From Gammaproteobacteria bacterium (lineage in GTDB: Bacteria; Pseudomonadota; Gammaproteobacteria; Ga0077536): 64,000 nucleotides of DNA. The number at the start of each line of letters is the position of its first letter. Position 1 is the first letter of the stretch. The translations under genes and the position numbers were made by a program. Positions 34,386 through 57,348 of this stretch are shown here, one piece after another. The DNA is taken from the NCBI GenBank assembly GCA_009692265.1, contig SHZM01000003.1:30231-94230 (forward strand), read 5' to 3'. The notes beneath the pieces were generated by a model. It was not told the origin of the DNA and did no database searches. It saw only the letters and a list, made by a program, of their open reading frames with translations.

Positions 34386-36479
34386 ATGAGCGTTGCGCTG
34401 ATATTTCCACCGGTGGTTGATCCGCGGGCCCCGCACCTTGCGTTGCCATCGCTCGCGGGATTCTTACGTGCGCAGGGCGTTGACGTGCACCTCTTCGACG
34501 CCAACGCACGCGGTCTGCGGTATTTATTGCAACCGGAACCGTTGAGTCGCGCCGCAAAATCTCTGCGCGAGTCGATGCGAAGCCGCTGGGATCTGGCGAC
34601 GCCGCAAGGTGTATTGGCGTTATATGCCAACAAAGTAACGGCCGGGATGCCCGAGGCACTGGCAACACTGTCGGACCCAATCCGATTTTTCGACGCCAAC
34701 GCTTACAACAGCGCACGTGAACTAGTGGTCGCGGGTCTTGCGGTCCACGCCGCCGCGCGCCATCCCGGCCTCACCTACAGCATTACGCCTCCTCGCTACG
34801 ATGTCGCCGGCATCGACCCGCAGCGACTGGATCATCTCATCGAAGTCACCAGCCAACCTGAATTCAATTTATTCTCGGAACATTGGGAAACTTCGCTGCT
34901 CCCTGCCTTGGCCAAGATTGAACCTGAATTGGTCGGTGTCACCATTACTAATCGCCAACAGCTAATCCCAGGGTTAACCTTGTGCAGACGCCTGCGGCAG
35001 GCCGGTTATTTCACCGTCATCGGCGGAACCGTATTCACCAAGTTCACAACCGAATTGGCGACACGTCCGGCCTTCTTCGAGCACTTCGCCGATGCCGTCA
35101 TTGCTTACGAAGGGGAAACCGCGATGCTCGCGCTGCTCGAAGCGCTGCGCAATGGCCGCGATTTCTCACGAGTCCCGAATCTCCTGTACGTGCACGACGG
35201 TCGAGTCCGCGTGACTCGCACCCACGTCGAAGAGGTGAATTCGTTACCCACCCCTGACTTCGCCGGGCTCGACTTTAAAGACTATCTAGCGCCCTACCCC
35301 GTTCTCCCAATCCTGACCGGGAAAGGCTGCTACTTTAACCGCTGCAAGTTTTGCGACATTCCGTATATCAATCACATCAGCCGTAAGGCCTATCGGCTGC
35401 GTGACGTGGAGAAAATCGCGGCCGACATCAACACGCTGGCCGAGCGCTTCGCGTGTCGTCATTTCCTAATCACCGACGAGGCGCTATCGCCCAAGCTCTT
35501 GGTCAAGTTGGCCGACGCGTTGGCACCCGTAAAATCGCACGGATATTCGTTCACGGGGTACGCCCGACTCGAAGCTGGCTTCACCCCCGAAGTGTGTGTG
35601 CGTTTGCACGAGATGGGCTTGCGCAAACTTTACTTTGGTCTCGAATCGGCGGATCAGGCAACCTTGGACCACATGGATAAGGGGACGGAGGCGGACGTCG
35701 CGCCGGAGGTCTTGCAGAACTGCGCGAGCGCGGGAATCAATTTTCACCTATTTTCGATCATAGGGTTCCCACAGGAAACCACCGCGGCTGCCCACACTAC
35801 CTGCGATTTCCTGCTGGCTCAACGCCCAGCGATCGACCGGCCCGGAAATAGTTTGGACATGCATCCGTTCGGACTCGAATTGCGCACCGATTATTTTCGT
35901 GACCGTGAGGCCTTCCAAATTGAGATCGCACCGGAAGCACTTGCCAAGGATTTCATCATCGGTGTCGAGCGGAACCAGTGGCGCAACCCCAACGGACTGG
36001 ATAGCGCTGAAGTCGATCGCCTGTTGTCCGAAGAGTTCTATCCACGACTTCGGCGGACTTATCGGCGCTACCAGGCAACCCCAGACGGGATCTGGCCAGG
36101 TTTTGAAGAATATGCGGGGTTGTATGGCGCTTATTACCAGGACCGAGAATTTCCGTACTACACCGCCATTGCAGACCTCGACTTTAGTCGTCCGCTAGTC
36201 CTAAGTTGGAATTCCGCGTTGGCGATGATTACTCACGACGAACAAACTCTCTTGGTACAGCACCGGCGATTTCTGCGGATCCCGCGCACGACGTATTCGG
36301 CCTTAAAAGGATTGCGCCTGGAGAGCCCAATCGAGCGAACTCTCGCCACACTCCCGATCCCAGAGGCGGCTACCCCGACCACGTTTCTCGGCTTTATCGA
36401 TTCATTGATCGCGGGCCGCTATCTTGAAGTCCGTCGAAGCGTCGATGTTGCACCGCAAGGAGCCGCTCAAGCCGCGTGA
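34386..36479 (+). CDS. B12-binding-type radical SAM enzyme of the RiPP locus
   Basis: A 697-residue enzyme. Residues 1-250 have the layout of cobalamin-binding radical SAM proteins (VALIFPPVVDPRAPHLALPS, LAGFLRAQGVDVHLFDA, GVTITNRQQLIPGL, GYFTVIGGTVFTK). The radical SAM core follows with the cluster cysteines C315, C320 and C323 in GCYFNRCKFCD, a CX4CX2C spacing instead of the commoner CX3CX2C, as in a subset of B12-type enzymes. YFGLESADQ and FSIIGFPQET are later core strands. About 180 residues extend beyond the core. ATG 34386 is chosen over an upstream TTG at 34344. It is the first gene of a five-gene run with the precursor immediately after it. Likely reactions are methylation or carbon-carbon/sulfur bond formation on the peptide; the exact one cannot be read. 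Confidence 0.85.
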   Translation: MSVALIFPPVVDPRAPHLALPSLAGFLRAQGVDVHLFDANARGLRYLLQPEPLSRAAKSLRESMRSRWDLATPQGVLALYANKVTAGMPEALATLSDPIRFFDANAYNSARELVVAGLAVHAAARHPGLTYSITPPRYDVAGIDPQRLDHLIEVTSQPEFNLFSEHWETSLLPALAKIEPELVGVTITNRQQLIPGLTLCRRLRQAGYFTVIGGTVFTKFTTELATRPAFFEHFADAVIAYEGETAMLALLEALRNGRDFSRVPNLLYVHDGRVRVTRTHVEEVNSLPTPDFAGLDFKDYLAPYPVLPILTGKGCYFNRCKFCDIPYINHISRKAYRLRDVEKIAADINTLAERFACRHFLITDEALSPKLLVKLADALAPVKSHGYSFTGYARLEAGFTPEVCVRLHEMGLRKLYFGLESADQATLDHMDKGTEADVAPEVLQNCASAGINFHLFSIIGFPQETTAAAHTTCDFLLAQRPAIDRPGNSLDMHPFGLELRTDYFRDREAFQIEIAPEALAKDFIIGVERNQWRNPNGLDSAEVDRLLSEEFYPRLRRTYRRYQATPDGIWPGFEEYAGLYGAYYQDREFPYYTAIADLDFSRPLVLSWNSALAMITHDEQTLLVQHRRFLRIPRTTYSALKGLRLESPIERTLATLPIPEAATPTTFLGFIDSLIAGRYLEVRRSVDVAPQGAAQAA

Positions 36480-36651: not shown

Positions 36652-37020
36652 ATGTCACACCAAGCATTTGTAGATTTTTATACCAAGTACCTGGACAGTG
36701 CGGCGGGTGAGCAATCGCGAGCCAAACTCGAAGGGATCAAGGATCACACGTTGTTCTGCGCCAAAATGGTCGAGTTAGGGAACGCGGCAGGCTTCAAATT
36801 CATCGCGGACGAAGTTAAGAGCGTGATGGAAGCGAGCGAAGCGAAAGCAGCTAAAGCCCTCGCGAAAGCCAGTGGAGAACTGTCTGAAGATCAACTCGAA
36901 GGCGTAGTCGGCGGCGCGGGCCGCGCCACCTCGATTCCGTTGGTTAACATCAGACCTGTTGTCGGAGGACTCAAAGTTGACCCAGGTAAGGTGGGGTCGA
37001 CCGTGATGTGCCCCTGGTAG
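36652..37020 (+). CDS. RiPP precursor peptide with Nif11/NHLP-type leader
   Basis: A 122-residue peptide; AAGGAGA precedes ATG 36652. The leader (residues 1-88) follows the Nif11-like pattern: QAFVDFYTKYLDS, LEGIKDHTLFCAKMVELGNA, GFKFIADEV and a final GELSEDQLEGVVGG. Cleavage after this double glycine would release a 34-residue core containing Thr5, Ser6, Ser28, Thr29 and Cys32 and ending MCPW. A second VVGG occurs at core positions 15-18; cleavage there would leave a 16-residue peptide with one Ser, one Thr and one Cys. The leader cysteine lies in LFCAKM. Modification enzymes surround the gene and a C39 peptidase transporter is encoded downstream, so this is very probably the substrate. Confidence 0.85.
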   Translation: MSHQAFVDFYTKYLDSAAGEQSRAKLEGIKDHTLFCAKMVELGNAAGFKFIADEVKSVMEASEAKAAKALAKASGELSEDQLEGVVGGAGRATSIPLVNIRPVVGGLKVDPGKVGSTVMCPW

Positions 37021-37039
37021 AGAAAACCTACCCTGTGTA

Positions 37040-37093: not shown

Positions 37094-37468
37094 ATGATGA
37101 CAGACGCTCCTAACGCCATTGATATCCTGGCGCGGCCTGGCGGCAACGATCAGGTCATTACAAAAAAAGTACTGCTAGCAGCGCTGGCGTGCGACGAAGC
37201 AGCGCGTCTAGCGCTTACGCCCAACGCCGAAACCGTCGCCGCCGTCGAAGCCAACTTCCTCGGTGCGCTTGCTATCCACAATCGCGTCGAGTTAGACGAA
37301 TGGCTTAACGCTTCGGCCTTAAGCTATGACGAATTCAAACTGGTGATGCGAGATTTCGCGGCTGTCGTGGTGGTCGAACATCACCATGCAAGCTTGCTTG
37401 GGCCGCGCATCGAACTTCACCGTCGCGTTGTTACCGCGCGTGAGCGCCGAATTTCGGCCCTAACCTAG
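37094..37468 (+). CDS. small helical protein of the RiPP locus, like the C-terminal region of TfuA
   Basis: 124 residues, no signal peptide or membrane segment. The stretch FLGALAIHNRVELDEWLNAS, LSYDEFKLVMRDFA has the same helix-turn pattern (F....GL...E...WL.AN.LS...F..L..D) as the TfuA C-terminal extension in this locus (DFRRDRGLLEAEAFGAWLNA, NEVDEASLNRLAQDD). Similar segments occur in peptide-maturation prolyl isomerases. It may therefore be a leader-peptide-binding or scaffold domain. This is inference from pattern only. It sits between the precursor and the LanB-type gene on the same strand. ATG 37094 and 37097 are both possible. Confidence 0.7.
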   Translation: MMTDAPNAIDILARPGGNDQVITKKVLLAALACDEAARLALTPNAETVAAVEANFLGALAIHNRVELDEWLNASALSYDEFKLVMRDFAAVVVVEHHHASLLGPRIELHRRVVTARERRISALT

Positions 37469-37523: not shown

Positions 37524-39809
37524 ATGCCTAGGTGTGACAAGCCCTTTCGACTGGCGCCCCTCGGGGTCGCCCGTGCCGCGGCTTGGCCGCTCGAAGCGTT
37601 GGCCGAGTTCGGTGATCCGACACTTCGCGCGCGTGCACTAGAGGGTCTTGCCCAGCTGGATCCACCGTCTTCGTTCGTGCGCGAGTATCAACTCACCTTG
37701 GAACGCGAGCGCGGGTATTTATGGCAGCAAACCTTTGACGATTCGCTCTTTTTGAAAGGGCTGATGTTGTCGAGCCCGTCGGCGTATCTTCGGGCCACGG
37801 CTGCGGCACAAAACCGGCGCGGTCTGCGCAATCGCGCGATGCGCCTTGTTGAACACACGCTGTATCGGTATCTCGCGCGCGCCGCTGGCAGGTCTACTCC
37901 GCAGGGAGTATGGGCCGGGATTACCGACGTTCACGTTGGCGCAGTAACGAAGTTTGAGCAGGTACCGGCGAGGTGTTTATTCACGCCGGATCTACGGCCG
38001 TTTCAATCACTGCTCCGCGGGCTCGGGCAACGTGAGGCATACCGCGCACGAGTGCCCTGGTGCCTGAATCCCAGCTTGAGCATCGGGCCCGAAAATGGTT
38101 GGCGCTTTTTCCATCGCACGGCTGGGGGCCACCTCGAAGAACGTCAGCTTACGTTCGATCCAACACTCGCCCACCTTTTGATGCAACTGGAAGCCTGCGA
38201 CCCTTTGCCTCTGGCTGATCTCGTCGGCGTGCTCACTGCTCAGGATCAGCCAGCGCTCGCAGATCCGAAATCTTGTATGACAACGCTACAGCAATTGGCA
38301 GCGGGCGGGGTGATGGTGGGCGCCCTGGATCTTCCGACACAATTCGAGAGTGCCTGGGATGCCTTGACTACAGTCAGCGACCAGTTGTTGCCAGACCATC
38401 GCCGGGAATGGGATTCGTGTCTCGCGTTACTCCGCGAGCACTGTGCCACCCTCGCTGATGGTCTATGGTCAATGTCGTGCGAGGACTTTGCGACCACCCT
38501 CGCACAACCGGCGGCGGCGATCGCGACTTTGGCGCAACGACTCGGACTCAACCTATTGCCGCTCGCGGAGGGCGTCGTGCGTTGTGATCTCCGATTACCG
38601 TGGCGACTCACCATCGATCGCGCGCTTTACGCTGCCATCGAGACCGCATTGGTAGAGTATGACGTTCATTGGCAGCATGGGCACAGCGCCGCAGCGGCGC
38701 AACGTGAACTCCGTCGCCGCTGGTTTACCGATCAACTCGGCGACGGACGCTCCCTCGCCGAAGCAAGCACGCTAATCGCCGGCAACAACACACCCGCGCC
38801 CGAATGGCCCCTTTCATCGACAGTGCATGAACCAGAAGTTAAACGACGCCTAGCCGCCTGGGAAGCCTGTCTGGATTCTCCGGCGCAGGCCCTAACCTTG
38901 CGCACCACACTGACCGCTCGAACTGCCACCGCCGCACCTTTCGGATGTTGGATGGTTGGGTTAGGCGCTGCCGATACGCTACGCGCACACAGCGTAAGCG
39001 ATCTGCCGACCATTGCCAGTGCGCGCTACGGTGAAGTCCTAGATTTGACGCGATTTAATCACTGGCTGCGGGCTGCGTTCGCGAAGAGTTCCCGCGATTC
39101 TGGCATCGCGCTGATGGGGTTTCGCGCTCCGTTCGAAACCAATCCAAACGCCCTCGCAAGTCCAGCGTTGTTTAACTCCACGGTCGCGCCGTGGGCAGCG
39201 GATTTTTCGCGCTCGTTACGCGGCGCACGCCTCATTGCGCATGAACCCAGCGGCCAACCCGTAGTGCGATTCCCGAATGACGGACATGCGTGGTCGGTGC
39301 TTGCGCTTGGCACGGCTAATTTGCAAGAGAACGATGTGCTCGCCGAAGTGTTGCTATGGACCGGCTTCCGCGATTCACCCCGGCGCGCGCAACGCGCGAT
39401 CGATGTGCTGACCGCGGGAGAATTGACGACCCCACGCTTCACGCCTCGGGTGGATCTGCCGGGTGGTGTGGTGCTGTGTCCGCGCCGATCTGTGATCGCC
39501 GCCGATCTCGCCGGACTGCGCGCGCGCCGCGGCGTTGCCCGTTTTTGGTACTGGCAACAACTCGCCGCGAAATTCGACTGGCCGCCGCAGCTAGAGGTCG
39601 CCACCGACCGTGGGGGCACCTTGCTGGTGTGCCGCGATAGCCCGCTCGCGGTCGAAGCTTTGTGCAAAGGGCTGAATACGGAGATTCGTTATCTGACTGT
39701 CCAAGAAGCGCCTTCGAACGCAGGTCTACCGCTTCCCGGAAGCGGCTCACATCGAGTAGAACTCGCCTTCCCGTTCCTCCGACAATCGCGCTCAGAGAAT
39801 AAGGACTAG
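37524..39809 (+). CDS. LanB-type dehydratase, N-terminal (glutamylation) component
   Basis: A 761-residue protein like the first domain of class I lantibiotic dehydratases. Seen: SPSAYLRATAAA, YRYLARAAGRSTPQGVWAGI (residues 115-132, the R.S.TP.G..AG motif), a second similar motif TARTATAAPFGCWMVGLG near 470, RFTPRVDLPGGVVLCPRR and a closing segment with FDWPPQLEV and LLVCRDSPLAVEAL, as at the end of glutamylation domains. Such domains transfer glutamate from glutamyl-tRNA to Ser or Thr. The elimination domain normally attached at the C-terminus is absent and is encoded by the convergent gene at 41295-42122. Without it the protein could also act as a tRNA-dependent peptide ligase. The stop codon touches the start of the next gene. 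Confidence 0.82.
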   Translation: MPRCDKPFRLAPLGVARAAAWPLEALAEFGDPTLRARALEGLAQLDPPSSFVREYQLTLERERGYLWQQTFDDSLFLKGLMLSSPSAYLRATAAAQNRRGLRNRAMRLVEHTLYRYLARAAGRSTPQGVWAGITDVHVGAVTKFEQVPARCLFTPDLRPFQSLLRGLGQREAYRARVPWCLNPSLSIGPENGWRFFHRTAGGHLEERQLTFDPTLAHLLMQLEACDPLPLADLVGVLTAQDQPALADPKSCMTTLQQLAAGGVMVGALDLPTQFESAWDALTTVSDQLLPDHRREWDSCLALLREHCATLADGLWSMSCEDFATTLAQPAAAIATLAQRLGLNLLPLAEGVVRCDLRLPWRLTIDRALYAAIETALVEYDVHWQHGHSAAAAQRELRRRWFTDQLGDGRSLAEASTLIAGNNTPAPEWPLSSTVHEPEVKRRLAAWEACLDSPAQALTLRTTLTARTATAAPFGCWMVGLGAADTLRAHSVSDLPTIASARYGEVLDLTRFNHWLRAAFAKSSRDSGIALMGFRAPFETNPNALASPALFNSTVAPWAADFSRSLRGARLIAHEPSGQPVVRFPNDGHAWSVLALGTANLQENDVLAEVLLWTGFRDSPRRAQRAIDVLTAGELTTPRFTPRVDLPGGVVLCPRRSVIAADLAGLRARRGVARFWYWQQLAAKFDWPPQLEVATDRGGTLLVCRDSPLAVEALCKGLNTEIRYLTVQEAPSNAGLPLPGSGSHRVELAFPFLRQSRSENKD

Positions 39810-41261
39810 ATGCCCATGGCTAATCCCTCGTCTACTTCAAGTGCGCGCCGATGGCTAAGTGCCGACGTGGCGCTGCGACTTCAGTACCACGACGAGACGG
39901 CTTATGGAAGTACGGTTTCCGGTCGTAGCGAACTTGAAATGCATCGGCGGTTTGCGGTGCTCCATGCCTATCGCCAGAAATTCGGCCTCCAACGCTTGGT
40001 GCATGAAGCACGCGCGGTGCTTGGAAGAGTTTTCCCGGAGGCGCTCGCCGGCATCGTGGACGGCACCGGTTTATCTGAAAACTGGCTGTACCCGGCACCC
40101 ACGAAAGTGATTCCGGCCTATCTGCGTGTGGAACGCGATCTTGGCGAAGTAGTCGTACAGATCCCCTTATCGCGGTCACTCACGCGGGATCTCGCGGCGT
40201 ACCTCGGTGACTGGCAGCGCGGCGCGACTCCACCGCAATCAGGCGCGGCAATGTCGCTGTGGGAGGCGTTGGTCGCGAGCGACGCGTTAGCTAAAGCGCG
40301 CCCGCGCGCGCCTTCATCCCGGCGGACGGGAGTGACCTATGTCGGACATGCCAGCTTGGCCGTAAGCGATGGCCAGCATCAAGTGCTGATCGATCCGTTT
40401 TTATTGCCTCGTTCCGCGCGCTATTCAAACCGCTGGCAGCCACTCTCGCATGCCGCGCTCGGACGCCCGGACGCGATTTTAATTACCCATTCGCACCCGG
40501 ATCACTTCGATCTAGGCACCCTGCTCCGTATGGGTGCGGACGTCCCGATCTATGTGCCGACGGTCGCACGTGAATCGATACTCGCCATCGATATGTCGGC
40601 GCGCCTGCGCGAACTGGGGTTCAGCGCGGTGCACTGCCTCGCGCCTTGGCAGCAAATTCGGGTCGGGGCGATCGAGATACTCGCGCTACCGTTTTACGGT
40701 GAGCAGCCAACGACTCACGAGGTTCTCCATCCGGAGGTGCGTAACTGTGGCTTGACCTATGCGATCAGCGTAGGAGAACAACGTATCAGCGTGCTCGCCG
40801 ACGCGGGCTGCGACCACAGCGGCGACGTCAAAGCTCTGGCCGGTCGGTCGCGCAGCCGCGAAGGGGCCATCAATACTGTCTTCGGTGGCTATCGCGGCTT
40901 CGCTGTCTACCCCGTGCAGTACCTGTTCTCGTCGGTAAGTCGCTATCTGCCTTTTGTCCCACCGTCTCTGTGGGGCGAACGGCAGCAGATCATGTGCGAC
41001 GCCGACGCTCTACTCGATGTCGGCGAACGTTGGGGCGCGACTCGCGTGGTGCCGTACGCCGACGGTGGCGCACCCTGGTTCTGGCTGCGTGGCCTGGGTC
41101 CGCGGCTGGATTCCAAATCACCGGCCGCGTTTGCCACTGACCCGCCGCCGCGGTATGTGCAAGAAGTCGCCGCTAAGCGCGGTCACACACGCTCGGACGG
41201 ACCACTCGCGTCACCGCTCGAAGTCACGGTATTAAAGGTTGGTGAGCATTTGCCCTGCTAG
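39810..41261 (+). CDS. metallo-beta-lactamase-fold protein with a novel N-terminal domain (RiPP locus)
   Basis: 483 residues. The first 160 residues match nothing I recognise (AVLHAYRQKFGLQRLVHEAR, then LSENWLYPAPTKVIPAYLR). From about 170 an MBL fold follows: GVTYVGHASLAVSDGQHQVL, then ITHSHPDHFD with the HxHxDH metal ligands and LADAGCDHSGDV as the later aspartate region. Catalytic residues look complete, so it should bind two metal ions and hydrolyse or oxidise something. MBL proteins in peptide clusters are poorly understood. TAG of the LanB-type gene is followed directly by ATG 39810. It ends 33 bases before the convergent SpaB_C gene. Confidence 0.8.
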   Translation: MPMANPSSTSSARRWLSADVALRLQYHDETAYGSTVSGRSELEMHRRFAVLHAYRQKFGLQRLVHEARAVLGRVFPEALAGIVDGTGLSENWLYPAPTKVIPAYLRVERDLGEVVVQIPLSRSLTRDLAAYLGDWQRGATPPQSGAAMSLWEALVASDALAKARPRAPSSRRTGVTYVGHASLAVSDGQHQVLIDPFLLPRSARYSNRWQPLSHAALGRPDAILITHSHPDHFDLGTLLRMGADVPIYVPTVARESILAIDMSARLRELGFSAVHCLAPWQQIRVGAIEILALPFYGEQPTTHEVLHPEVRNCGLTYAISVGEQRISVLADAGCDHSGDVKALAGRSRSREGAINTVFGGYRGFAVYPVQYLFSSVSRYLPFVPPSLWGERQQIMCDADALLDVGERWGATRVVPYADGGAPWFWLRGLGPRLDSKSPAAFATDPPPRYVQEVAAKRGHTRSDGPLASPLEVTVLKVGEHLPC

Positions 41262-41294: not shown

Positions 41295-42122
41295 CTAGCG
41301 GTGTAGTCCAGCGACCACCCCCGCGACAATCGGTGCCGAGCGCTGAGCCGGGAAGCCATGCCGATTGAAGGTGAAAAATGCGGTGGTCGCCGCGATGTCG
41401 GCCGTTGAGCAGATCGGTGACACCTCGCGTAAGGCGCGAGCGAAAAATCGGTTGCCGGCCCGATAGGCCGCAAGGATAGCGCGTTCCTCAGCACCCAATT
41501 CGGCCGCTCGACACAGGTCATCAAGCGAGGCCGGCGCACCGGCGTCGACGTGATCCTCCGCATCAAGCAGTACGTGCCGGGCGAGACTGTGCCAGGGCGC
41601 AACAACATCTCCGGCGACTTCGCGAAACAGGTCGTGAAATACCGCGGCTAGTGCCGCACCAGCCGATAAGGCGCGCTGCGCCTGCCGGTCGATTTGTTCG
41701 AAGCGATACCACAGAACGCTGTCGAGCATGAACCATGCGTGCACTAAGTTCAGTGCAGCGGCTCCGCCAAAACGCGCTACTTCCGGGTGATAGGTTCCAG
41801 CCGTACTACTCGCGATTACACCGTCGGCGACTGCCTGCTGCAACGACTGCGCGAGTGATGACAGTGCGGGCTGCGCGACCGCTGTCGCTAAGATGCGCAA
41901 GCGCACATCCGGCGGTTTGCGCATAAAAAACCAGCCGTGAACTTGGTCCGCGCCGGCGCGTGGCTCCCACCAGTCAACGACCCGCTTAAACATCTCTTGG
42001 GCACTGAGCCGTGCGTCGCCAGCGCGTCGAACAAGACCAATGTCGAACTGCACCCAACGTGCCGTTTCCAGCGGTGGGGTAAAACAGAGTTCCGGCAGTT
42101 CGTGTACCGCATGCGACGTCAT
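41295..42122 (-). CDS. SpaB_C-type (LanB elimination domain/thiopeptide-type) protein
   Basis: A 275-residue protein of the thiopeptide-type bacteriocin biosynthesis family, equivalent to the glutamate-elimination domain of LanB. Seen: ARWVQFDIGLVRRAGD, VHGWFFMRKPPDVRLRI and GTYHPEVARFGG, followed by helical sequence with LDSVLWYRFEQI. In class I lanthipeptide and thiopeptide pathways this domain removes glutamate from glutamylated Ser/Thr to give dehydroamino acids. Together with the LanB N-terminal protein it makes a split dehydratase. The gene is on the opposite strand and divergent from the flavoprotein gene, with 93 bases between the two starts, so it is transcribed apart from its partner. 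Confidence 0.8.
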   Translation of the reverse strand: MTSHAVHELPELCFTPPLETARWVQFDIGLVRRAGDARLSAQEMFKRVVDWWEPRAGADQVHGWFFMRKPPDVRLRILATAVAQPALSSLAQSLQQAVADGVIASSTAGTYHPEVARFGGAAALNLVHAWFMLDSVLWYRFEQIDRQAQRALSAGAALAAVFHDLFREVAGDVVAPWHSLARHVLLDAEDHVDAGAPASLDDLCRAAELGAEERAILAAYRAGNRFFARALREVSPICSTADIAATTAFFTFNRHGFPAQRSAPIVAGVVAGLHR

Positions 42123-44555: not shown

Positions 44556-44623
44556 GACCGCGAGGGCATCGTGCATAACAGCCTGCTCAAGGTACCCGCG
44601 CAATCGCGCCACAGGCTTGGCAA

Positions 44624-47449: not shown

Positions 47450-47624
47450 CGAAAAGACTCCGTGTCGGCCGCGCGGCCGGGTCCATTTTAAGTTACCAAG
47501 GGGAGCAGCACCTTGACACATTTAAGCGCACTGGGACCGAATTTCAAATCTACTCCCTCCTGCGGATATTTCAGTCCATGCTTGAGTTAGAATCATCTGC
47601 ACCATCGATTAGACGTGGACCCCG

Positions 47625-47966: not shown

Positions 47967-48505
47967 TGCGACGCGTACTCTTTCTATTCGGGGAACTCAG
48001 CGACAGCGATGTGGACTGGCTCGGTGACGCCGGCCGCGTAACGACCCTCGCACAGGGCGAAACATTGATCAGCGCGGGCACCTTGCCAAGCCAACTGGCG
48101 ATCCTCCTTGATGGCGAATTAGCAGTCGTAATGCCGGGGTCTGGCCTCGATCTCGCTCGTCTGCAGGAGGGCGAGCTTGTCGGTGAACTAACTTTCCTCG
48201 ATCCCCGCCCGCCGCTGGTTAGCGTGAAGGCGGTGACCTCCAGCCTGGTGTTACAGATCCCGCATCGCTCGATTGCGACCCGACTCGCACGGGATAATTC
48301 GTTCGCGGCGCGTTTCTATCGCGGACTCGGCGTGTTTCTGGCAAGTCGGCTGCGCGAAACCACCGGGCGTTTCGGCGTGGCGGCCACGGTCAATGTAGGC
48401 GACCAGTACCTCGAAGCCGACGAGCTCGATGATGAGGGGATGGAGCGCACGGCGCTCGCCGCGCGCCGCTTCGAATTCCTGCGCAACAAGCTCGGCGTTC
48501 TGTAA
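47966..48505 (+). CDS. cyclic-nucleotide-binding-domain protein of the export operon
   Basis: 179 residues from ATG 47966. The first 120 residues form a cNMP-binding beta-roll: GRVTTLAQGETLISAGTLPS, LAILLDGELAVVMPG, LARLQEGELVGELTFLDPRP, SVKAVTSSLVLQIPHRSI. The phosphate-binding cassette (GELTFLDPRPPLVSV) is degenerate, lacking the usual RxA pattern, so nucleotide binding is doubtful. There is no helix-turn-helix. Similar domains are fused to NHLP-type transporters; a regulatory or structural role in export is inferred. Confidence 0.78.
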   Translation: MRRVLFLFGELSDSDVDWLGDAGRVTTLAQGETLISAGTLPSQLAILLDGELAVVMPGSGLDLARLQEGELVGELTFLDPRPPLVSVKAVTSSLVLQIPHRSIATRLARDNSFAARFYRGLGVFLASRLRETTGRFGVAATVNVGDQYLEADELDDEGMERTALAARRFEFLRNKLGVL

Positions 48506-50001: not shown

Positions 50002-52243
50002 CGGCGCGAACAGTTCGGAGACCGCTTCCAAGCCGCCAGCCTCCGCGGCCCGCGTTAATACACCGCCGGTCTTGCAGCTCGAGGCAGTCGAATGCGGTGC
50101 GGCGGCCCTCGCGATGGTACTGCGCTTCCATGGCCGCCTCGTGCCCTTAGCGGCATTGCGCCGGCAGTGCGGTGTTTCGCGTGACGGCAGCAAAGCGTCG
50201 AATATCGTCAAGGCCGCCCGCCACTATGGCCTGGCGGCTAAGGGCTACAGCAAAGAACTGGACCAGGTTTTCTCGCTCAAACCTCCCTTCATCGTGTATT
50301 GGAACTTCAATCATTTCCTGACCTGCGAAGGAATTGATCGGGCACGTAACCGAGTCTACTTAAACGATCCCTCGGTCGGCCACCGCACCGTTACCTTGAA
50401 TGAGTTCAACAAGGCCTACACTGGCGTGGTATTAACCTTTGAGCCCGGTCCCGAGTTTGTCGCCGGCGGTCAACTCCCAAATCCCTTTACTGGAATTCGT
50501 CAACGCCTGGCCGGCTCCACGCGGGCAGTTGTGTTCTGTGTACTGACTGGCTTCCTGCTCGTGGTTCCCGGACTCGCTGTTCCTGCGTTCAACCAGATCT
50601 TCATCGACGCAATTGTGCTCGAATCGCGCACCGAGTGGTTACGTCCGCTGGTGCTTGCGATGCTGTGCGCGGTCGTCGCGCAAGGCCTACTCGAGTACCT
50701 CCAATTGCGGTATTTGCGACGGCTAAAAATCAAACTCTCGATAAAACTATCGAGTGACTATTTGTGGCATCTACTCCATCTACCGGCAAGTTTTTACGCC
50801 CAACGGTATAGCGGCGAAATCGCCAACCGCAGTGAGCTCAACGACAAGCTTGCGGGCCTCCTGTCTGGCCGCCTGGCACAGACTGCCATTGATGTAGTCA
50901 TGATGGTTTTTTACGGCGCACTGATGTTTTGGTACGACGTGACATTGACCTTAATCGCGATTGGTTTTGCCGCCGTCAATGGCTTCGTCCTGGCGTTCAT
51001 TTCGAAACAACGGACCGAGACGAACATGCGTGTGCTGCAGGAGTACGGTAAGGCTGGTGGGGTCGCCATGGCCGGCCTGCAGAGCATTGAAACCCTCAAG
51101 GCCTCGGGGCTGGAATCAGGTTTATTTGCCCAATGGGGTGGCTACTACGCCAAGGCGACGGTCGCTCGCCAACAACTTGAACTCTCTAATCGATGGTTAA
51201 CCGTAACACCGGCCTTGTTAACCGGGCTCACGACTTTATCGCTAATAACCCTAGGCGGCATGCGCGTGGTTAATGGCGAGCTGACGATCGGCATGCTCGT
51301 CGCAATGCAAAGTCTGATCGGAAGCTTCTTAGCGCCAATCAATACCATGGTCAGCCTTGGCGGCGTGTTCCAGGAACTGCGCGGAGATCTCGATCGCATC
51401 GACGATGTGTTGATGAACGAAGTAGTCCCGAAAGCCGACAGCGACGAAATCCTGGATCAGGACGGTGACCGCATCACTCGCCTTGACGGTTACATCGAAC
51501 TGCGCGACGTTGTTTATGGCTACAGCCCGCTCGATCCGCCGCTGTTCGATCACTTCAGTCTCTCGATCACGCCCGGTCAACGCATCGCGCTGGTCGGCGG
51601 CAGCGGTTCGGGCAAATCGACCTTGGGGAAAATAATCAGCGGCGAGTACCAGCCATGGTCGGGGGAGGTCCTATTCGACGGCCGACCGCGGGTTTCGATT
51701 CCTCCAGAAGTCATGCGAAATTCCTTTGCGGTCGTCGATCAGGACATCAGCTTGTTCGAAGGAACCCTGCGCGAGAATCTCTCGCTATGGGATCCGACGA
51801 TTCCCGATGCAGTACTGCAAAACGCGTGTCACGATGCCGCGGCGTGGAGCTTCGTCTCGACGATGGTCGGCGGCTTCGACGGACAATTACGCGAAGGAGG
51901 AATTAATTTAAGCGGCGGCCAACGCCAGCGCCTCGAAATTGCCCGCGCCTTGGTTCACAACCCGGCGATCCTGATTTTTGACGAGGCCACCAGCGCGCTC
52001 GATGCCGAGACCGAAGCGATCGTCATGGAAAATCTGCGCACGCGCGGGTGTACCGTCATCATGATCGCACATCGCTTAAGTACCGTGATTGAGTGTGACG
52101 AGATTTTGCTGCTGCAGGATGGCCAAATCCGCGAACGCGGCACCCATGAAGCGTTGTGGCAGGAAAACGGCGCTTACGCGCGCTTAATGCGTGCCGATCA
52201 GGAACCAACCCTCGCGGTGGAGCCCGAGGAAGCGGATGCCTGA
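49994..52243 (+). CDS. C39-peptidase-containing ABC transporter (NHLP type)
   Basis: 749 residues. The N-terminal C39 peptidase has the complete triad: Cys34 in LEAVECGAAALAMVL, His107 in YWNFNHFLTCEG and Asp125 in VYLNDPSVGH. It cleaves leaders after a double glycine, matching the precursor at 36652. Residues 165-450 contain the membrane domain and the rest the ATPase with GGSGSGKSTL, LSGGQRQRLEIARAL and ILIFDEATSALD. This is the canonical processing and export protein of NHLP/Nif11-leader RiPPs (TIGR03796-like). The start is TTG 49994, overlapping the adaptor gene. All catalytic residues are intact. Confidence 0.92.
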   Translation: MADGANSSETASKPPASAARVNTPPVLQLEAVECGAAALAMVLRFHGRLVPLAALRRQCGVSRDGSKASNIVKAARHYGLAAKGYSKELDQVFSLKPPFIVYWNFNHFLTCEGIDRARNRVYLNDPSVGHRTVTLNEFNKAYTGVVLTFEPGPEFVAGGQLPNPFTGIRQRLAGSTRAVVFCVLTGFLLVVPGLAVPAFNQIFIDAIVLESRTEWLRPLVLAMLCAVVAQGLLEYLQLRYLRRLKIKLSIKLSSDYLWHLLHLPASFYAQRYSGEIANRSELNDKLAGLLSGRLAQTAIDVVMMVFYGALMFWYDVTLTLIAIGFAAVNGFVLAFISKQRTETNMRVLQEYGKAGGVAMAGLQSIETLKASGLESGLFAQWGGYYAKATVARQQLELSNRWLTVTPALLTGLTTLSLITLGGMRVVNGELTIGMLVAMQSLIGSFLAPINTMVSLGGVFQELRGDLDRIDDVLMNEVVPKADSDEILDQDGDRITRLDGYIELRDVVYGYSPLDPPLFDHFSLSITPGQRIALVGGSGSGKSTLGKIISGEYQPWSGEVLFDGRPRVSIPPEVMRNSFAVVDQDISLFEGTLRENLSLWDPTIPDAVLQNACHDAAAWSFVSTMVGGFDGQLREGGINLSGGQRQRLEIARALVHNPAILIFDEATSALDAETEAIVMENLRTRGCTVIMIAHRLSTVIECDEILLLQDGQIRERGTHEALWQENGAYARLMRADQEPTLAVEPEEADA

Positions 52244-55145
52244 CGTCATTTTAGAACGAGCCGCGATTCGCGCCCTCGGTGGCCGCCGCATCGTCATGCG
52301 TAGCCATCATCCGTTGGTGCTCGAAAATCCGCGTCGGATGTGGCTGGTGCTAAGCGGCGCTGTCACCGTGATGACCTCGCGCGTCACACACGGCTTGCCG
52401 ATTGGCGTGCGTCGACGCGTGTTCGAAGCAGGGCCTGGGACGCCACTGTTTCCGGTGTCCGACGGCCGCGCGACTGACGCAGAGCGATTAATCGTCGTCT
52501 CATCGGGAGAAACGGTGCTCGCGGAAGCGCCGCTAAAGAATGCTTCGCAGCTATTGAACACTATCGCCATGCCGCTGCCGCGGGCGATCGGGACATGGGC
52601 CGGAAAACTCTCGTTGTTCGCCGCGCGCGGGCAGGATTTCGCCGGGGCGGATCGCTTCCCGCATGACGGAAAATTCGGATTACCGGATGGCATGCTGATC
52701 TGCGCCGATCGCGATAATGTCACGTGGCTACGCCTTGAAGAAGGTGAGCTGCACGCGTTTGGCGACCCGGAGTTGCGCCTCGGTAAACTTCCGTTTGATC
52801 TGCCAGTGGGGGGCGCGATTTGGTTCCAAGCCAAAGGCGACTCGAAAGTCGTGGTGCAAAGCCAAGTCGCGGGCGACGACCTCGACCTCATCCGCGGGCT
52901 GGCCGTGTTCAATTCACTGCTGCAGACCCGGCTAGCGCAGTTTGAGCAACAGGACAGCGCGGCCGAGCGCATTCGCCTGAGCGAGTCGGCAACTCGTGAG
53001 CGCGAGGCGTTGCGCGGCGGTCTCAAACAGCTCTCCAGCGTGTTGAACCCACGCGAATCGCCGGCACCGCGCGCCACCCCCCTCCTCACCGTCGCGGCGC
53101 TCGTTGGCGATATTCTCGGCGTTAAAATTCAAGCCCCCGCGCAGGCCGAAGATATGCGGCTGGTCAAAGAGCCAATTGAAGCGATTGCGCGGTCGTCGCG
53201 AATCCGTTACCGCACGGTGTTGCTTGCGGGGCGTTGGTGGGAACAGGACTGTGGCCCTTTGATTGCCTATCTAGCCGCGGACCACCGCCCGCTCGCGCTG
53301 CGTCGACAAACCTGGCGCGGCTACACACTCTTCGATCCACAGTCCGGGCGTGAAGAATTGATCACCCCGGAGCTCGCGTTGAAGTTGGAACCCAAGGCGA
53401 TCATGCTCTATCCCCGGTTGCCGGAGTCGGTACGCTCGTTATGGGGAGTCATAGGGCACGCGCTGGGCGGACGCTTGAAAGATCTCATTCTCGTCTTCGG
53501 CATTTCAAGTCTCATCACAGTGGTGGGCATGATCGTGCCGCAGGCCACGGGTCTTTTAATGGACCACGCGATCCCGGATGCGAATCGTCGGTTGCTGGGT
53601 GAACTAGGATTGGCAATGCTGATGGCCGCAATCGGCGCTGCCGCGTTATCCCTCGTCCAGGGTGTCGTGAATACGCGGATTAATTTAAGCACCGATGCCC
53701 AGTCGCAAGGCCTGGTCTGGGATCGGGTTCTGAGCCTGCGCCCGCCAACTTTTCGTCAATACTCAAGCGGCGATCTGCTCGACCGGGTACTCGCGATCAG
53801 CCGGATGGTTCAGTCCGTCAACGGGCAGGTGATGCGCTCGCTGTTAATGGGTACCACCTCGCTGTTGAATCTCGGTCTGATGTTCTTGTACAGCGGCACC
53901 TTGGCAGCCGGTGGCTTGGTGTTGGGGCTCATCGTGGCGCTGGCGACATTCGTCGCCGGCTACGTGGCGCGCCGCTACTATCGGCAGTTGATGGAATTTC
54001 AAGGACGGTTCTTTGGCTTTGTCGTCGAACTCGTCAACGCTGTCAGTAAAATTCGGGTCGCGGCAGCTCAGGGGCGTGCCTACGCGCGATGGGCTGAACG
54101 CTACGCCGAACAACAGCACTTAACGCGCAAGGGTCAGCGCATCGAGGACGGAGTATCGGTGTTGAATTCGTTGGTACCGCTGCTCAGCTCAATCATCATC
54201 TTCTGGCTCGGTGCCGGACTGCTCAACGCGGAGGGACAGTCGCGGCTCACCGTTGGCTCATTTCTCGCGTTTAATTCCGCGATGGGGTTATTCCTAATGG
54301 GTATGACCACCCTCAGTAACACGGTGCTCGATTTGCTGGACGTGGCGGTCGTCGCCGAGCGCGTGCGGCCCCTCCTCGAAGCCGCGATCGAAGTTGACGA
54401 AACCTTGCATGATCCCGGGCGCTTACGCGGTGCCGTTGAATTCAAGGACGTGGGTTTCAGTTATGGCGTCGACGGCCCGCAAATTTTGCATGGCGTGAGC
54501 TTTAAGGCCGCACCCGAAGAGTTTGTGGCGTTTGTGGGACCTTCCGGCAGCGGCAAGTCCACGATTTTTCGCTTGCTCCTGGGATTTGAACAACCGAGCG
54601 CAGGCAACGTCGCGTTCGACAACCGAGATCTTTCTGGCCTGGATGTTACCCTCGTTCGCCGCCAACTCGGGGTGGTGTTGCAGACAGCTCGGATTAACGC
54701 CGGATCACTCTTTGAGAACATCGGAGTCGGCGCCAATTTGTCCGTGGACGAGGCCTGGGCCGCTGCCGAAGACGCCGGATTTGCCGACGAAATCAAGGCC
54801 ATGCCGATGGGTATGCACACCGTCATCAGCGAAGGCGGCACCAATCTCTCGGGCGGCCAACGGCAACGCTTGTTGATCGCGCGATCCCTTGTCCGCAATC
54901 CCAAACTGCTGCTGTTTGATGAAGCCACGAGTGCGCTCGACAACCGCACCCAAGCGATCGTCAGCGCGGCGCTAGAACGTCGCAAGGTCACCCGCTTGGT
55001 AATCGCCCATCGTCTGAGCACGATTCGCCACGCCGATCGCATCTATGTGCTCGCGGCGGGGAGAGTGGTCGAAATGGGCAATTTCGATGAACTGGCCCAG
55101 GCAAATGGCGTTTTTGCGTCGATGATGGCTCGGCAGACAACCTAG
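52236..55145 (+). CDS. second ABC transporter with a cNMP-like N-terminal region (NHLP type)
   Basis: 969 residues from ATG 52236, preceded by GAGGAAG. The first 120 residues form a cNMP-like beta-roll (VMRSHHPLVLENPRRMWLVL, SGAVTVMTS) with no protease cysteine. A long middle region (about 120-430) has helical and unassigned parts; the membrane domain spans about 415-700; the ATPase has GPSGSGKSTIFR, LSGGQRQRLLIARSL and LLLFDEATSALD. Proteins of this form accompany the C39 transporter in NHLP loci (TIGR03797-like) and probably form a heterodimer or a second pump. The gene overlaps the C39 transporter by eight bases. Confidence 0.9.
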   Translation: MPDVILERAAIRALGGRRIVMRSHHPLVLENPRRMWLVLSGAVTVMTSRVTHGLPIGVRRRVFEAGPGTPLFPVSDGRATDAERLIVVSSGETVLAEAPLKNASQLLNTIAMPLPRAIGTWAGKLSLFAARGQDFAGADRFPHDGKFGLPDGMLICADRDNVTWLRLEEGELHAFGDPELRLGKLPFDLPVGGAIWFQAKGDSKVVVQSQVAGDDLDLIRGLAVFNSLLQTRLAQFEQQDSAAERIRLSESATREREALRGGLKQLSSVLNPRESPAPRATPLLTVAALVGDILGVKIQAPAQAEDMRLVKEPIEAIARSSRIRYRTVLLAGRWWEQDCGPLIAYLAADHRPLALRRQTWRGYTLFDPQSGREELITPELALKLEPKAIMLYPRLPESVRSLWGVIGHALGGRLKDLILVFGISSLITVVGMIVPQATGLLMDHAIPDANRRLLGELGLAMLMAAIGAAALSLVQGVVNTRINLSTDAQSQGLVWDRVLSLRPPTFRQYSSGDLLDRVLAISRMVQSVNGQVMRSLLMGTTSLLNLGLMFLYSGTLAAGGLVLGLIVALATFVAGYVARRYYRQLMEFQGRFFGFVVELVNAVSKIRVAAAQGRAYARWAERYAEQQHLTRKGQRIEDGVSVLNSLVPLLSSIIIFWLGAGLLNAEGQSRLTVGSFLAFNSAMGLFLMGMTTLSNTVLDLLDVAVVAERVRPLLEAAIEVDETLHDPGRLRGAVEFKDVGFSYGVDGPQILHGVSFKAAPEEFVAFVGPSGSGKSTIFRLLLGFEQPSAGNVAFDNRDLSGLDVTLVRRQLGVVLQTARINAGSLFENIGVGANLSVDEAWAAAEDAGFADEIKAMPMGMHTVISEGGTNLSGGQRQRLLIARSLVRNPKLLLFDEATSALDNRTQAIVSAALERRKVTRLVIAHRLSTIRHADRIYVLAAGRVVEMGNFDELAQANGVFASMMARQTT

Positions 55146-55245
55146 ACACATTCCTCGAATGAATCTAGATATTCTTGGAATTCTTTTTATTCATAGGTGG
55201 TTAGGTGATATATTTAATCTAATTTAGCGTCACTCCCGTTTAATC

Positions 55246-57348
55246 ATGCCGAACGCCGACCGAGACAACCGACTTTCCGGATACGGGCGCGTGCCAGGGC
55301 TGGCGTCATTGGTGTTGATTGCGGGGTGTTGGCAAACCGATCCGCCGATTCTGGGGCCCGAGTCATCGGCGCGGGTCACTGCCATTGAGCTTGAGGCACC
55401 ACCTGCTAAAACGACCGCCACGCCGGCCCCAGCCGCAGACACTCTCGACCTGTCGAAAAAAATTGAACCGATGCGTCCGCCGGTTGAACTGCCGGCGGCG
55501 AAAGTCGAACCTGCGGAGGGACGCCTTGAAGTGACCCTGGCAGATGTAAGGCAAGCGGCGTTACACCACAATCTGGATATTCAGGTCGAGCAAATTAGGC
55601 CAGCGCTCTCGCGCGAAGACACAGCGGAAGCCGAGGCGCGCTTCGAACCCACAGGCTTCGCCCGCTATACCCATTCAAAGCTTGATGTCCCCGGAATTCC
55701 GCACGCACGGGCGGCGGACCGAACCGCGATAGACGACGCTGAATTCGGGATCAGTCTGCCGTTACAGACCGGCGGGTCGGCCACCGTCAGTATGCCGGTG
55801 ACCCGTACTGATTTCGGCATTCCGGGTGCCGCGAATTCGGTCGATACCGCAGCCAGTTTTTCGTTGAGTCAGCCCTTGCTCCGGGATGCTGGTTTCAGCG
55901 TGAATCGCGCGCCGATTACGATCGCGCGTCTGCGCGAGCGACAACAGGATTCCCGCACGAAACTCGCGATCCTCAATGTGCTCGCCAATACCGAGCGCAC
56001 GTATTGGGGACTTTATGCGGCGGCCCGCAGCGTTGAAGTGCGACTCAAGCAGCACGAGCGTGCGCGCACCCAAGAACACCAAGCGATCCGCCTAACCGAA
56101 GAAGGGGTGTTACCGAGAATTGAAATTACGCGGGCGCGCGCCGGTGTCGCACGCCGGATCGAAGACATCATCCGTGCGGAGAATTTACGTCGGCAAACAG
56201 AGCGCGAATTGAAAAGAGTGATGAATCGGCCTGAGTTACCCGTCAGCTCGGCCACGGCATTGATCGCCACCAGCCCACCCGATCCGCGCGAACTCGAGAT
56301 AGAGGCCTCCAAGGCGCTGCAAACAGCCTATAGCAACCGCATGGAGCTGCTCGATCTTGAGCTCCAAATGGCCTCGGACGCCTTATCGGTGGATGTCGAG
56401 CGCAATGCGAAGCTGCCGAATCTCGCGTTCGATTACAGCTTCAAGTACCTCGGCGCGGCGTCGCGTTTCAGTCGCTCGATCGATCAGATTGGCGAGACCG
56501 ATTTCACCGACCAGTTCATGGGCGTGACCTTGGAAGTTCCGCTAGGCAACGCCGCGCGCGAAGCACGGTTCCGCCGCGCCCTGGTGCAAAGCGCGCTGAC
56601 CCAAACGACTACTCATCAACAGCGCCAGTTTATTGAACGTCAGGTGCTCGACGCGATCGATCAGATTCAAGAGGCGTGGCAACGAATACTCGCCGCACGC
56701 GAAGAAACTCTGCTGGCAGCGACCAACTACAAGGCCGAGCAAAGTCAGTTTCTGGCTGGCGCTCGAACCAGCACCGATGTGCTGGAGGCTACAGACTTTC
56801 TAGCCGAAGCCCAGCTGCGCGAGATCAACGCACTCGCTACCTACGAAATCGCGAAGATCGACCTTGCGTTCGTCACCGGCACATTGCTGGGTAGCGGCAA
56901 AGTCGAATTGCAACCTTACACGATACCGGCTACCGCCGCTCGCCTGCCGGTCGCCCCTTCCGTCGCACAAACCTCTCAACGAGTTGAACATAAACTCGAC
57001 GCACTTGGGGTCGATGCGTCGACGCCTACACAGATCGTGCGCGAAGCAGATCCGGTTCCAGCTCCCGCACCGCCACCCACAACGACCCCACCAGAGATTG
57101 ATGCCGCTGTATCGTTCGGCCCAGTCGCCGCGACCGATACGGTATGGGCGATTGCGCAGGCCCACCGACCACGTCCCGACGTCGCCGTGCCAGTGATGAT
57201 CGACGCAATTGTGCGCGCAAATCCGACAGCGTTCGAAGCGCAGGATCCCACGCGCCTCCGGCTAGGAGTTACCCTCCGTATCCCGGAGATGAATGAAGTC
57301 GCGGCAACAACCTCAGCGGCGGTCGCGGCGCGCGGGACGTCTCCGTAG
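55246..57348 (+). CDS. TolC-family outer-membrane lipoprotein with a FimV-like LysM tail
   Basis: 700 residues. The N-terminus has a lipobox (ASLVLIAGC, cysteine about 28), so the mature protein is a lipoprotein. Residues 90-580 have the two helical repeats of TolC channels (TLADVRQAALHHNLDIQVEQ, AATNYKAEQSQFLAGARTST). After a proline-rich linker the last 70 residues (ATDTVWAIAQAHRP, AIVRANPTAF, LRLGVTLRIP) match the LysM-like domain of FimV/HubP proteins, which binds peptidoglycan. That combination is unusual; it would tie the export channel to the cell wall. The 100 bases upstream are AT-rich and may hold its own promoter. Confidence 0.85.
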   Translation: MPNADRDNRLSGYGRVPGLASLVLIAGCWQTDPPILGPESSARVTAIELEAPPAKTTATPAPAADTLDLSKKIEPMRPPVELPAAKVEPAEGRLEVTLADVRQAALHHNLDIQVEQIRPALSREDTAEAEARFEPTGFARYTHSKLDVPGIPHARAADRTAIDDAEFGISLPLQTGGSATVSMPVTRTDFGIPGAANSVDTAASFSLSQPLLRDAGFSVNRAPITIARLRERQQDSRTKLAILNVLANTERTYWGLYAAARSVEVRLKQHERARTQEHQAIRLTEEGVLPRIEITRARAGVARRIEDIIRAENLRRQTERELKRVMNRPELPVSSATALIATSPPDPRELEIEASKALQTAYSNRMELLDLELQMASDALSVDVERNAKLPNLAFDYSFKYLGAASRFSRSIDQIGETDFTDQFMGVTLEVPLGNAAREARFRRALVQSALTQTTTHQQRQFIERQVLDAIDQIQEAWQRILAAREETLLAATNYKAEQSQFLAGARTSTDVLEATDFLAEAQLREINALATYEIAKIDLAFVTGTLLGSGKVELQPYTIPATAARLPVAPSVAQTSQRVEHKLDALGVDASTPTQIVREADPVPAPAPPPTTTPPEIDAAVSFGPVAATDTVWAIAQAHRPRPDVAVPVMIDAIVRANPTAFEAQDPTRLRLGVTLRIPEMNEVAATTSAAVAARGTSP

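What the first reader, a model, noticed from the sequence alone, without database searches (positions are those of the whole stretch)
34386..57348. Unusual combined RiPP locus: LanB-type split dehydratase, YcaO-TfuA, B12 radical SAM, flavoprotein and two MBL-fold enzymes around one Nif11-leader precursor
Seen in sequence: a precursor with a Nif11-type leader and double-glycine site, and a C39 transporter with intact catalytic triad, plus five different classes of tailoring enzyme within 13 kb. Established knowledge: YcaO with TfuA makes thioamides, LanB with SpaB_C makes dehydroamino acids, B12 radical SAM enzymes methylate or cross-link. I know of no described family combining all these with two MBL proteins and no LanC cyclase. 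Inference: one peptide carries several modification types. The locus has no visible lesion although many neighbours are dead, which suggests selection to keep it.
Basis: partly seen in the sequence, partly recalled or inferred. Interest (0 to 1): 0.92.

Follow-up and report, generated by a model that had tools for sequence, protein, structure and literature searches.

The report
Exported-peptide cluster with CmlA-like oxygenase
This stretch holds a gene set, whose core is found again in other bacterial phyla, that is predicted to make and export a small peptide whose nearly invariant tail is likely dehydrated, thioamidated and hydroxylated, and one protein first read as a lactamase-type enzyme has a predicted structure most like iron oxygenases such as that of the chloramphenicol pathway.

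Summary
The gene inventory is right and the set is conserved as a unit. A relative in the same family (G322) carries every gene in the same order; two Nostoc genomes carry the core on one contig; the LanB glutamylation gene lies beside an MBL-fold gene, or one small gene away, in 10 of 10 genomes found (four phyla). The precursor family ends in a near-invariant T-x-M-C-(P/C)-W (T-x-M-C in 23 of 24), better conserved than leader or mid-core.

Main correction: MBL1 is not an ordinary metallo-hydrolase. Its best solved relatives, by profile and by full-length predicted fold, are CmlA and FrsH, diiron beta-hydroxylases of non-ribosomal pathways, and it keeps their glutamate position in 32 of 32 sequences. 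In relatives MBL1 is fused to the LanB elimination domain or to the small domain encoded upstream of LanB here. MBL2 stays ambiguous.

Against the finding: a second B12 radical-SAM gene, full length in two relatives, is a fragment here (44588-44806), so the locus has a lesion; relative G717 has no YcaO, so thioamidation is not obligatory; thioamide clusters with Nif11 precursors and B12 radical-SAM enzymes are published. No activity is shown. New variant of a known kind.

The parts
34344..36479 (+). B12-dependent radical SAM protein (711 aa), predicted methyltransferase
   Evidence: Pfam Radical_SAM 4.5e-12; B12-binding 2e-6, below cut-off; best NCBIfam TIGR03975 rSAM_ocin_1 6.3e-28, below cut-off; 64% identical counterpart in G322
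36652..37020 (+). precursor peptide, 122 aa; leader to GG = 36652-36915, 34-residue core 36916-37017, invariant tail STVMCPW 36997-37017
   Evidence: 20 proteins (the window's own among them) plus 4 Nostocales precursors aligned; tail conservation; coordinates
37094..37468 (+). small helical protein (124 aa), stand-alone form of a domain fused elsewhere to MBL1, MBL2 and TfuA
   Evidence: TIGR04500 matches 7 of 11 domain copies at E <= 1, best 7.9e-10, not the window copy itself
37524..39809 (+). LanB glutamylation-type protein (761 aa), no elimination domain
   Evidence: Lant_dehydr_N 1.6e-17; MibB 9.5e-5 and NisB 0.008 among PDB profile hits
39810..41261 (+). MBL1, CmlA/FrsH-like diiron oxygenase (483 aa)
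41295..42122 (-). SpaB_C elimination-type protein (275 aa)
   Evidence: Lant_dehydr_C 2.8e-17, TIGR03891 79.8 bits over cut-off 48.45
42216..43193 (+). FAD oxidoreductase, thioredoxin-reductase-like (325 aa)
   Evidence: Pyr_redox_2 1.8e-9, TIGR01292 1.5e-16 below cut-off
43197..44555 (+). MBL2, second MBL-fold protein (452 aa), function unresolved
   Evidence: Lactamase_B_3 2e-8; best PDB profile hit FrsH 2.1e-12, then NAPE-PLD 1.3e-10; fold ties among hydrolases and CmlA
44588..44806 (+). remnant of a second B12 radical-SAM gene that is full length in G322 and G717
   Evidence: tblastn 48% over 73 codons, E 2.7e-11 (G322) and 3.9e-12 (G717); it follows MBL2, as the full-length gene does in G322
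44928..46238 (-). TfuA with C-terminal extension related to the 124-aa protein
   Evidence: Pfam TfuA 2.5e-45; TIGR04500 6.1e-6, below cut-off; hhalign probability 97.9
46229..47521 (-). YcaO, closest to the McrA-thioamidating type
   Evidence: Pfam YcaO 1.2e-73; best NCBIfam TIGR03266, below its cut-off
47625..47966 (+). small protein with one membrane segment (by eye), role unknown
   Evidence: 39% identical counterpart at the same place in G322
47912..48505 (+). cyclic-nucleotide-binding domain protein of the export system; start uncertain
   Evidence: TIGR03896 2.6e-39, below cut-off
48556..50001 (+). NHLP-type HlyD secretion protein
   Evidence: TIGR03794 333.3 bits, over cut-off
49994..52243 (+). 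C39 peptidase/ABC exporter
   Evidence: TIGR03796 1020.8 bits, over cut-off
52191..55145 (+). second NHLP-type ABC transporter
   Evidence: TIGR03797 838.9 bits, over cut-off
55246..57348 (+). TolC-type outer membrane channel
   Evidence: Pfam OEP 3.7e-26

Best explanation
The locus encodes a co-conserved gene set, likely one pathway, in which a Nif11-type precursor ending in S-T-V-M-C-P-W is likely dehydrated by a split LanB pair, predicted to be thioamidated by YcaO-TfuA and likely hydroxylated by a CmlA/FrsH-type diiron oxygenase (MBL1), and would then be cut after its double glycine and exported by an NHLP-type C39 transporter. Shown here: gene content and order, co-conservation, the invariant tail, MBL1's relationship to CmlA and FrsH, and fusions that tie MBL1 to the elimination domain and to the small helical domain. 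Inferred: the chemistry and its sites. The natural target is the tail, because it is the most conserved part of the precursor: the Thr is the likely dehydration site. The terminal Trp is a likely site for variable decoration, since lineages with the same tail add Trp-halogenase-family, JmjC/cupin or B12 radical-SAM proteins. The helical domain shared by MBL1, MBL2, TfuA and the 124-aa protein is proposed to bind the leader or hold the enzymes together.
Against: No activity or product is known. G717 (98% complete) has no YcaO match, so thioamidation is not obligatory. In Trichormus and Nostoc FACHB-152 the LanB-MBL part and the precursor-SpaB_C-YcaO-TfuA part lie on different contigs; in Paraliomyxa and Corallococcus YcaO-TfuA is on contigs other than LanB's. 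No precursor was recognised in S. paradoxus or Paraliomyxa. A diverged MBL1 relative occurs in 64 of 195 Myxococcota genomes, and the five such regions examined have no LanB, SpaB_C, YcaO or TfuA match. The elimination-domain His of NisB could not be aligned. MBL2's fold does not separate oxygenase from hydrolase. The B12 radical-SAM best matches and the YcaO best match stay below their curated cut-offs.
Confidence: 0.5

Rival explanations
1. The LanB-like protein is a peptide aminoacyl-tRNA ligase (PEARL) that adds an amino acid to the C-terminal Trp, and the MBL proteins remove the tRNA or process the adduct.
For: It lacks an elimination domain, is about 760 aa, and the precursor's C terminus is nearly invariant.
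Against: PMC11212132 (passages) states that PEARLs do not co-occur with PF14028; here a SpaB_C protein is on the same contig in 7 of 10 genomes and in the same genome in 2 more. The invariant C-terminal Glu is not followed by Arg two residues on (A, G or I in 14 of 14), whereas the PEARLs in PMC11962472 have Glu813/Arg815 and Glu801/Arg803 (passages); the correspondence of positions is my assumption.
Confidence: 0.12
2. MBL1 and MBL2 are metal hydrolases (UlaG- or NAPE-PLD-like) that trim the peptide or hydrolyse an intermediate, not oxygenases.
For: Both carry HxHxDH; MBL2's nearest folds include NAPE-PLD and other hydrolases at tied Z; database names say hydrolase or UlaG.
Against: MBL1 fits CmlA/FrsH over nearly its whole length with a clear gap to the next chains and has their Glu position in 32 of 32 sequences. 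MBL2 has Glu at the FrsH-aligned position in 7 of 9, Asp in 1, Pro in 1.
Confidence: 0.25
3. MBL1 replaces LanC: a metal-bound Cys thiolate closes a T-x-x-C methyllanthionine ring on the dehydrated Thr.
For: T-x-M-C is kept in 23 of 24 precursors, and Corallococcus has TTYGCCAW; T-x-x-C is a classical lanthionine ring spacing (recalled); no LanC among the 16 genes; MBL1 is fused to the elimination domain in relatives.
Against: MBL1's closest solved relatives are oxygenases; no metallo-lactamase-fold cyclase of this kind is known to me.
Confidence: 0.08
4. Two pathways side by side: a LanB/MBL pathway and an independent YcaO-TfuA pathway, joined by chance in some genomes.
For: G717 has no YcaO match; YcaO-TfuA is on other contigs in 4 of 10 genomes.
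Against: On the separate contigs of Trichormus and FACHB-152 the YcaO-TfuA pair sits with the same precursor family and SpaB_C; S. paradoxus has LanB, SpaB_C, YcaO, TfuA in direct succession; TfuA carries a domain related to the one fused elsewhere to MBL1 and MBL2.
Confidence: 0.15

Closest known systems
TfuA-related (thioamidated) RiPP clusters with Nif11-like precursors, PMC8120280
   Same: adjacent YcaO-TfuA, Nif11-like GG precursor, B12 radical SAM, matching exporters, Nostoc/Anabaena members (parts 1-3 of 6 read)
   Different: the words lactamase, diiron, CmlA and halogenase do not occur in its main text; the T-x-M-C-x-W precursor family and the LanB-MBL1 module are not described in the parts I read; its supplementary figures were not seen
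CmlA and FrsH diiron beta-hydroxylases
   Same: full-length predicted fold, HxHxDH, Glu and Asp positions
   Different: those two act on amino acids tethered to NRPS carrier domains (PMC7794379 passages); here there is no NRPS among the 16 genes and the partners are a ribosomal precursor and LanB
split class I lanthipeptide dehydratases (LanB_B plus elimination protein), as in thiopeptides and goadsporin
   Same: separate glutamylation and elimination proteins with conserved site residues
   Different: no LanC and no azole-type cyclodehydratase partner among the 16 genes; elimination domain fused to MBL1 in relatives
PEARLs
   Same: LanB glutamylation-type protein without elimination domain
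   Different: PF14028 is in the neighbourhood
NHLP/NHLM peptide export systems
   Same: C39 ABC, second ABC and HlyD pass family cut-offs
   Different: none noted

Membership tests
TfuA-YcaO thioamidated RiPP cluster | adjacent ycaO and tfuA genes | tested here: met
   overlap by 10 bases, same strand
TfuA-YcaO thioamidated RiPP cluster | thioamide in the peptide | not testable with these tools
   no product known
Split class I LanB dehydratase | PF04738 protein and separate PF14028 protein in one locus | tested here: met
   counterparts on one contig in 7 of 10 genomes
Split class I LanB dehydratase | glutamylation-site residues (NisB Arg83, Arg87, Thr89, Asp121, Asp299 by recall) | tested here: met
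   R119, R123, D156, D355 in 14 of 14; T125 in 12 of 14; first three aligned to NisB, the two Asp only to MibB
Split class I LanB dehydratase | elimination-site residues (NisB Arg784, Arg786, Glu823, Arg826, His961 by recall) | tested here: inconclusive
   first four aligned and kept in the window; His region not alignable
PEARL | no PF14028 in the neighbourhood | tested here: not met
   PF14028 gene at 41295-42122
PEARL | ATP-binding Glu-x-Arg near the C terminus | tested here: inconclusive
   invariant Glu746 with A/G/I at +2; equivalence of position assumed
CmlA/FrsH diiron beta-hydroxylase (MBL1) | HxHxDH plus Glu and Asp ligand positions | tested here: met
   invariant in 32 of 32, aligned to CmlA; ligand roles recalled
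CmlA/FrsH diiron beta-hydroxylase (MBL1) | N-terminal domain plus MBL domain fold over full length | tested here: met
CmlA/FrsH diiron beta-hydroxylase (MBL1) | iron content and oxygenase activity | not testable with these tools
   needs protein
CmlA/FrsH diiron beta-hydroxylase (MBL1) | substrate on an NRPS carrier domain, the setting of the two characterised members | tested here: not met
   no NRPS domain in the 16 genes; so MBL1 is filed as a relative, not as a member
CmlA/FrsH diiron beta-hydroxylase (MBL2) | fold closer to CmlA/FrsH than to hydrolases | tested here: inconclusive
   profile prefers FrsH, fold ties
Nif11-leader RiPP precursor | score over the family cut-off | tested here: inconclusive
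   window 12.8 against 23.8 bits; 21 of 24 family members match at E <= 1
NHLP/NHLM export system | TIGR03794, TIGR03796, TIGR03797 over cut-off | tested here: met
Lanthipeptide | LanC or another known cyclase | tested here: not met
   none among the 16 genes

The most novel reading that the evidence does not exclude
A CmlA-type diiron oxygenase works hand in hand with a LanB pair: MBL1 puts a beta-hydroxyl on a tail residue other than Ser or Thr (Val, Met or Trp of T-V-M-C-P-W), the LanB protein glutamylates that new hydroxyl and SpaB_C, fused to MBL1 in relatives, eliminates it, so that the ribosomal peptide gains dehydro residues from ordinary amino acids by a hydroxylate-glutamylate-eliminate route.
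Probability: 0.13. Interest if true: 0.87.

Novelty: new variant of a known kind. Interest (0 to 1): 0.62.

Why it matters
If right, an oxygenase type known from non-ribosomal antibiotic assembly has been recruited to ribosomal peptides and, in relatives, physically joined to LanB elimination, and MBL-fold genes in RiPP clusters, easily passed over as hydrolases, become readable as likely oxygenases by one glutamate position. It also defines a compact precursor family (T-x-M-C-(P/C)-W tail) in Pseudomonadota and Cyanobacteria, with lineage-specific tailoring genes, that can be searched and expressed directly.

Tried and rejected
Counting the family by protein search alone: only 14 LanB homologues came back, self included (7998 candidates scored), so the count is a lower bound. 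TfuA on the LanB contig in all cyanobacteria: places on C64 and C12 first looked linked, but those contigs (32171 and 16842 bases) are not the LanB contigs (84191 and 38225 bases), so I call them unlinked. A Nif11 search of the whole own genome found nothing. Treating all MBL1-like hits as the same protein: six further hits in the sample of N. calcicola's order cover only part of the model and were dropped from the MBL1 count; the Myxococcota family (64 of 195 at E <= 1e-60) scores about half of the full-length group and shows no LanB, SpaB_C, YcaO or TfuA match in 5 of 5 regions looked at, of 64. Nucleotide comparison of the window's flanks with 54 kb around the G322 cluster gave no match at E <= 1e-5; across genera this says little. 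TfuA itself was not searched in G717 (only YcaO). The plasmid, phage, E. coli and viral collections and the PADLOC and PHROG libraries were not searched. In the VIA-align list for MBL1 the rows other than CmlA/FrsH cover only the MBL domain; for MBL2 only residues 1-278 were tested, so its C-terminal domain is unplaced. A P-x-V-N-I motif lies after the GG in the window family but before it in Nostocales; I could not explain it.


Full report
What is there. Sixteen genes from 34344 to 57348 have unbroken frames. Pfam and NCBIfam assign a B12 radical SAM protein, a LanB glutamylation-type protein, two MBL-fold proteins, a SpaB_C elimination-type protein on the minus strand, an FAD oxidoreductase, TfuA and YcaO (minus strand), and an NHLP-type export set. 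The precursor starts at the ATG at 36652 and reads 122 residues with the site ELSEDQLEGVVGG and a 34-residue core ending STVMCPW. The own genome (3.4 Mb, 118 contigs, 95% complete) has one TfuA and one YcaO match, both in this locus.

Co-conservation. A search of 5.8 billion proteins gave 14 LanB homologues, self included (only the 7998 candidates sharing most words were scored). A scan of one genome per species with their alignment gave 7 confirmed loci: Trichormus, three Nostoc, Streptomyces paradoxus, Paraliomyxa, Corallococcus. A sample of 299 genomes of the own phylum gave LanB in 1, the own genome itself. MBL1 is in 2 of 36 genomes of the own order and 3 of 369 of the own class, the own genome counted each time, and in 1 of 296 of the phylum of S. 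paradoxus, that species itself. With G322 and G717, found through MBL1, there are 10 LanB-bearing genomes. LanB is next to MBL1 or MBL2, or one small gene away, in 10 of 10; because MBL1 was the bait for two, the fairer figure is 8 of 8. SpaB_C is on the same contig in 7 (window, G322, G717, Nostoc NOS, N. calcicola, S. paradoxus, Paraliomyxa), on another contig in 2 (Trichormus, FACHB-152), not seen in Corallococcus, whose contig ends inside LanB. A YcaO-TfuA pair is on the same contig in 5 (window, G322, NOS, N. calcicola, S. paradoxus), elsewhere in 4, and no YcaO was found in G717. A precursor with the tail motif was recognised in 8 of 10: window, G322, G717, the four Nostocales genomes, and Corallococcus (looser tail); none in S. 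paradoxus or Paraliomyxa. In the two order samples together (36 + 195 genomes, known carriers among them) full-length MBL1 is in 4 and TfuA in 17; the 4 have both. Among the 13 LanB homologues other than the window's, 6 have the same longest-contig length as one of the 120 listed MBL1 homologues, which suggests, but does not show, that they share a contig.

G322, a genome of the same family as the own genome, has the complete cluster in the same order with two precursor copies; identities run from 39% (small membrane protein) to 78% (C39 transporter), with LanB 51%, MBL1 61%, MBL2 67%, YcaO 67%, precursor 59%.

The precursor family. Twenty-two proteins match the precursor, self included; I aligned 20 of them, leaving out the two weakest, plus four Nostocales precursors. 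T-x-M-C lies at or near the end in 23 of 24; the exception has a different C terminus. Among 19 protein-search sequences, the window's own included and the exception dropped, mean pairwise identity is 68% in the leader, 43% in residues 89-115 and 93% in the last seven. Corallococcus has a candidate upstream of MBL2 ending TTYGCCAW. The pattern suggests that the tail is what the enzymes need or change. Leader type: weak but consistent Nif11.

Fusions. Of 120 listed MBL1 homologues (349 found) 16 also carry PF14028, the elimination domain. In my set of 32, six are such fusions and five others carry instead a C-terminal copy of the 124-aa protein's domain, as does S. paradoxus MBL1; in the four Nostocales MBL2 sequences that domain is at the C terminus, and TfuA's extension is related to it (hhalign probability 97.9 against a group of four TfuA, 89.0 against three Nostocales TfuA). 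TIGR04500, a putative peptide-maturation family, matches 7 of 11 copies at E <= 1. A domain that travels among three enzymes of one cluster is a good candidate for binding their common substrate; this is inference.

LanB or PEARL. LanB keeps the two Arg and two Asp positions of the glutamylation site in 14 of 14 and the Thr in 12 of 14; Arg, Arg and Thr are aligned to NisB, the Asp positions to MibB (roles recalled). PMC11212132 (passages) says that PEARLs do not co-occur with PF14028, which here is present. I therefore favour a split dehydratase.

Tailoring differs by lineage. NOS has two Trp-halogenase-family proteins and two JmjC/cupin proteins, S. paradoxus two JmjC/cupin proteins and a luciferase-like monooxygenase, G717 a Trp-halogenase-family protein with a long N-terminal extension and a B12 radical SAM protein, G322 a second B12 radical SAM protein. 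In the window a gene of that second kind is a 73-codon remnant. A leader-guided RiPP brominase acting on a C-terminal Trp is known (PMC10286304, start of abstract in the listing), so the terminal Trp is a plausible halogenation site in those lineages.

What is in print. PMC8120280 (parts 1-3 of 6 read; word search of the main text) describes TfuA-YcaO clusters with Nif11-like precursors, B12 radical SAM, matching transporters and, in other clusters, split dehydratases. PMC6511847 was only searched for words. PMC11962472: passages and one section. In nine searches no title or abstract beginning in the listings describes a CmlA-type oxygenase in a RiPP pathway; several listings were cut to the best 12 or 20 papers. 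Of the papers that hold the telling words together I read passages of three: PMC9248904 (CmlA-like genes in NRPS lipopeptide clusters), PMC10495429 (CmlA only in a reference) and PMC8510958 (TfuA and lactamase in unrelated places). The library lacks most subscription papers, so this is not proof of novelty.

Verdict. A real, conserved and unusual RiPP cluster, best seen as a new variant of thioamide/dehydroamino-acid clusters, with one reassigned enzyme that makes it interesting. The chemistry remains to be shown.

Noticed in passing
window 44588-44806: fragment of a second B12 radical-SAM gene, full length in G322 (directly after MBL2) and in G717 (one gene after MBL2)
   Followed up: yes
window 36916-37017 and L012:9882-10253: a P-x-V-N-I(R) motif lies after the GG site in the window's precursor family but before it in Nostocales precursors; the product boundary or a recognition site may have shifted
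   Followed up: partly
L036 14952-16574: G322 has two neighbouring precursor genes with different mid-cores and the same tail
   Followed up: no
L019 (Paraliomyxa C154): an MBL2-like gene (E about 1e-34) near YcaO and TfuA on a contig without LanB, as if the pathway were split between two loci
   Followed up: no
L039-L068, L073-L077: a diverged CmlA-like MBL family (308 to 366 bits) in 64 of 195 Myxococcota genomes, not LanB-linked in five regions looked at; function unknown
   Followed up: partly
window 55246-57348: the TolC-type protein has a C-terminal stretch matching the FimV core model (TIGR03505, over cut-off), unusual for an outer membrane channel
   Followed up: no
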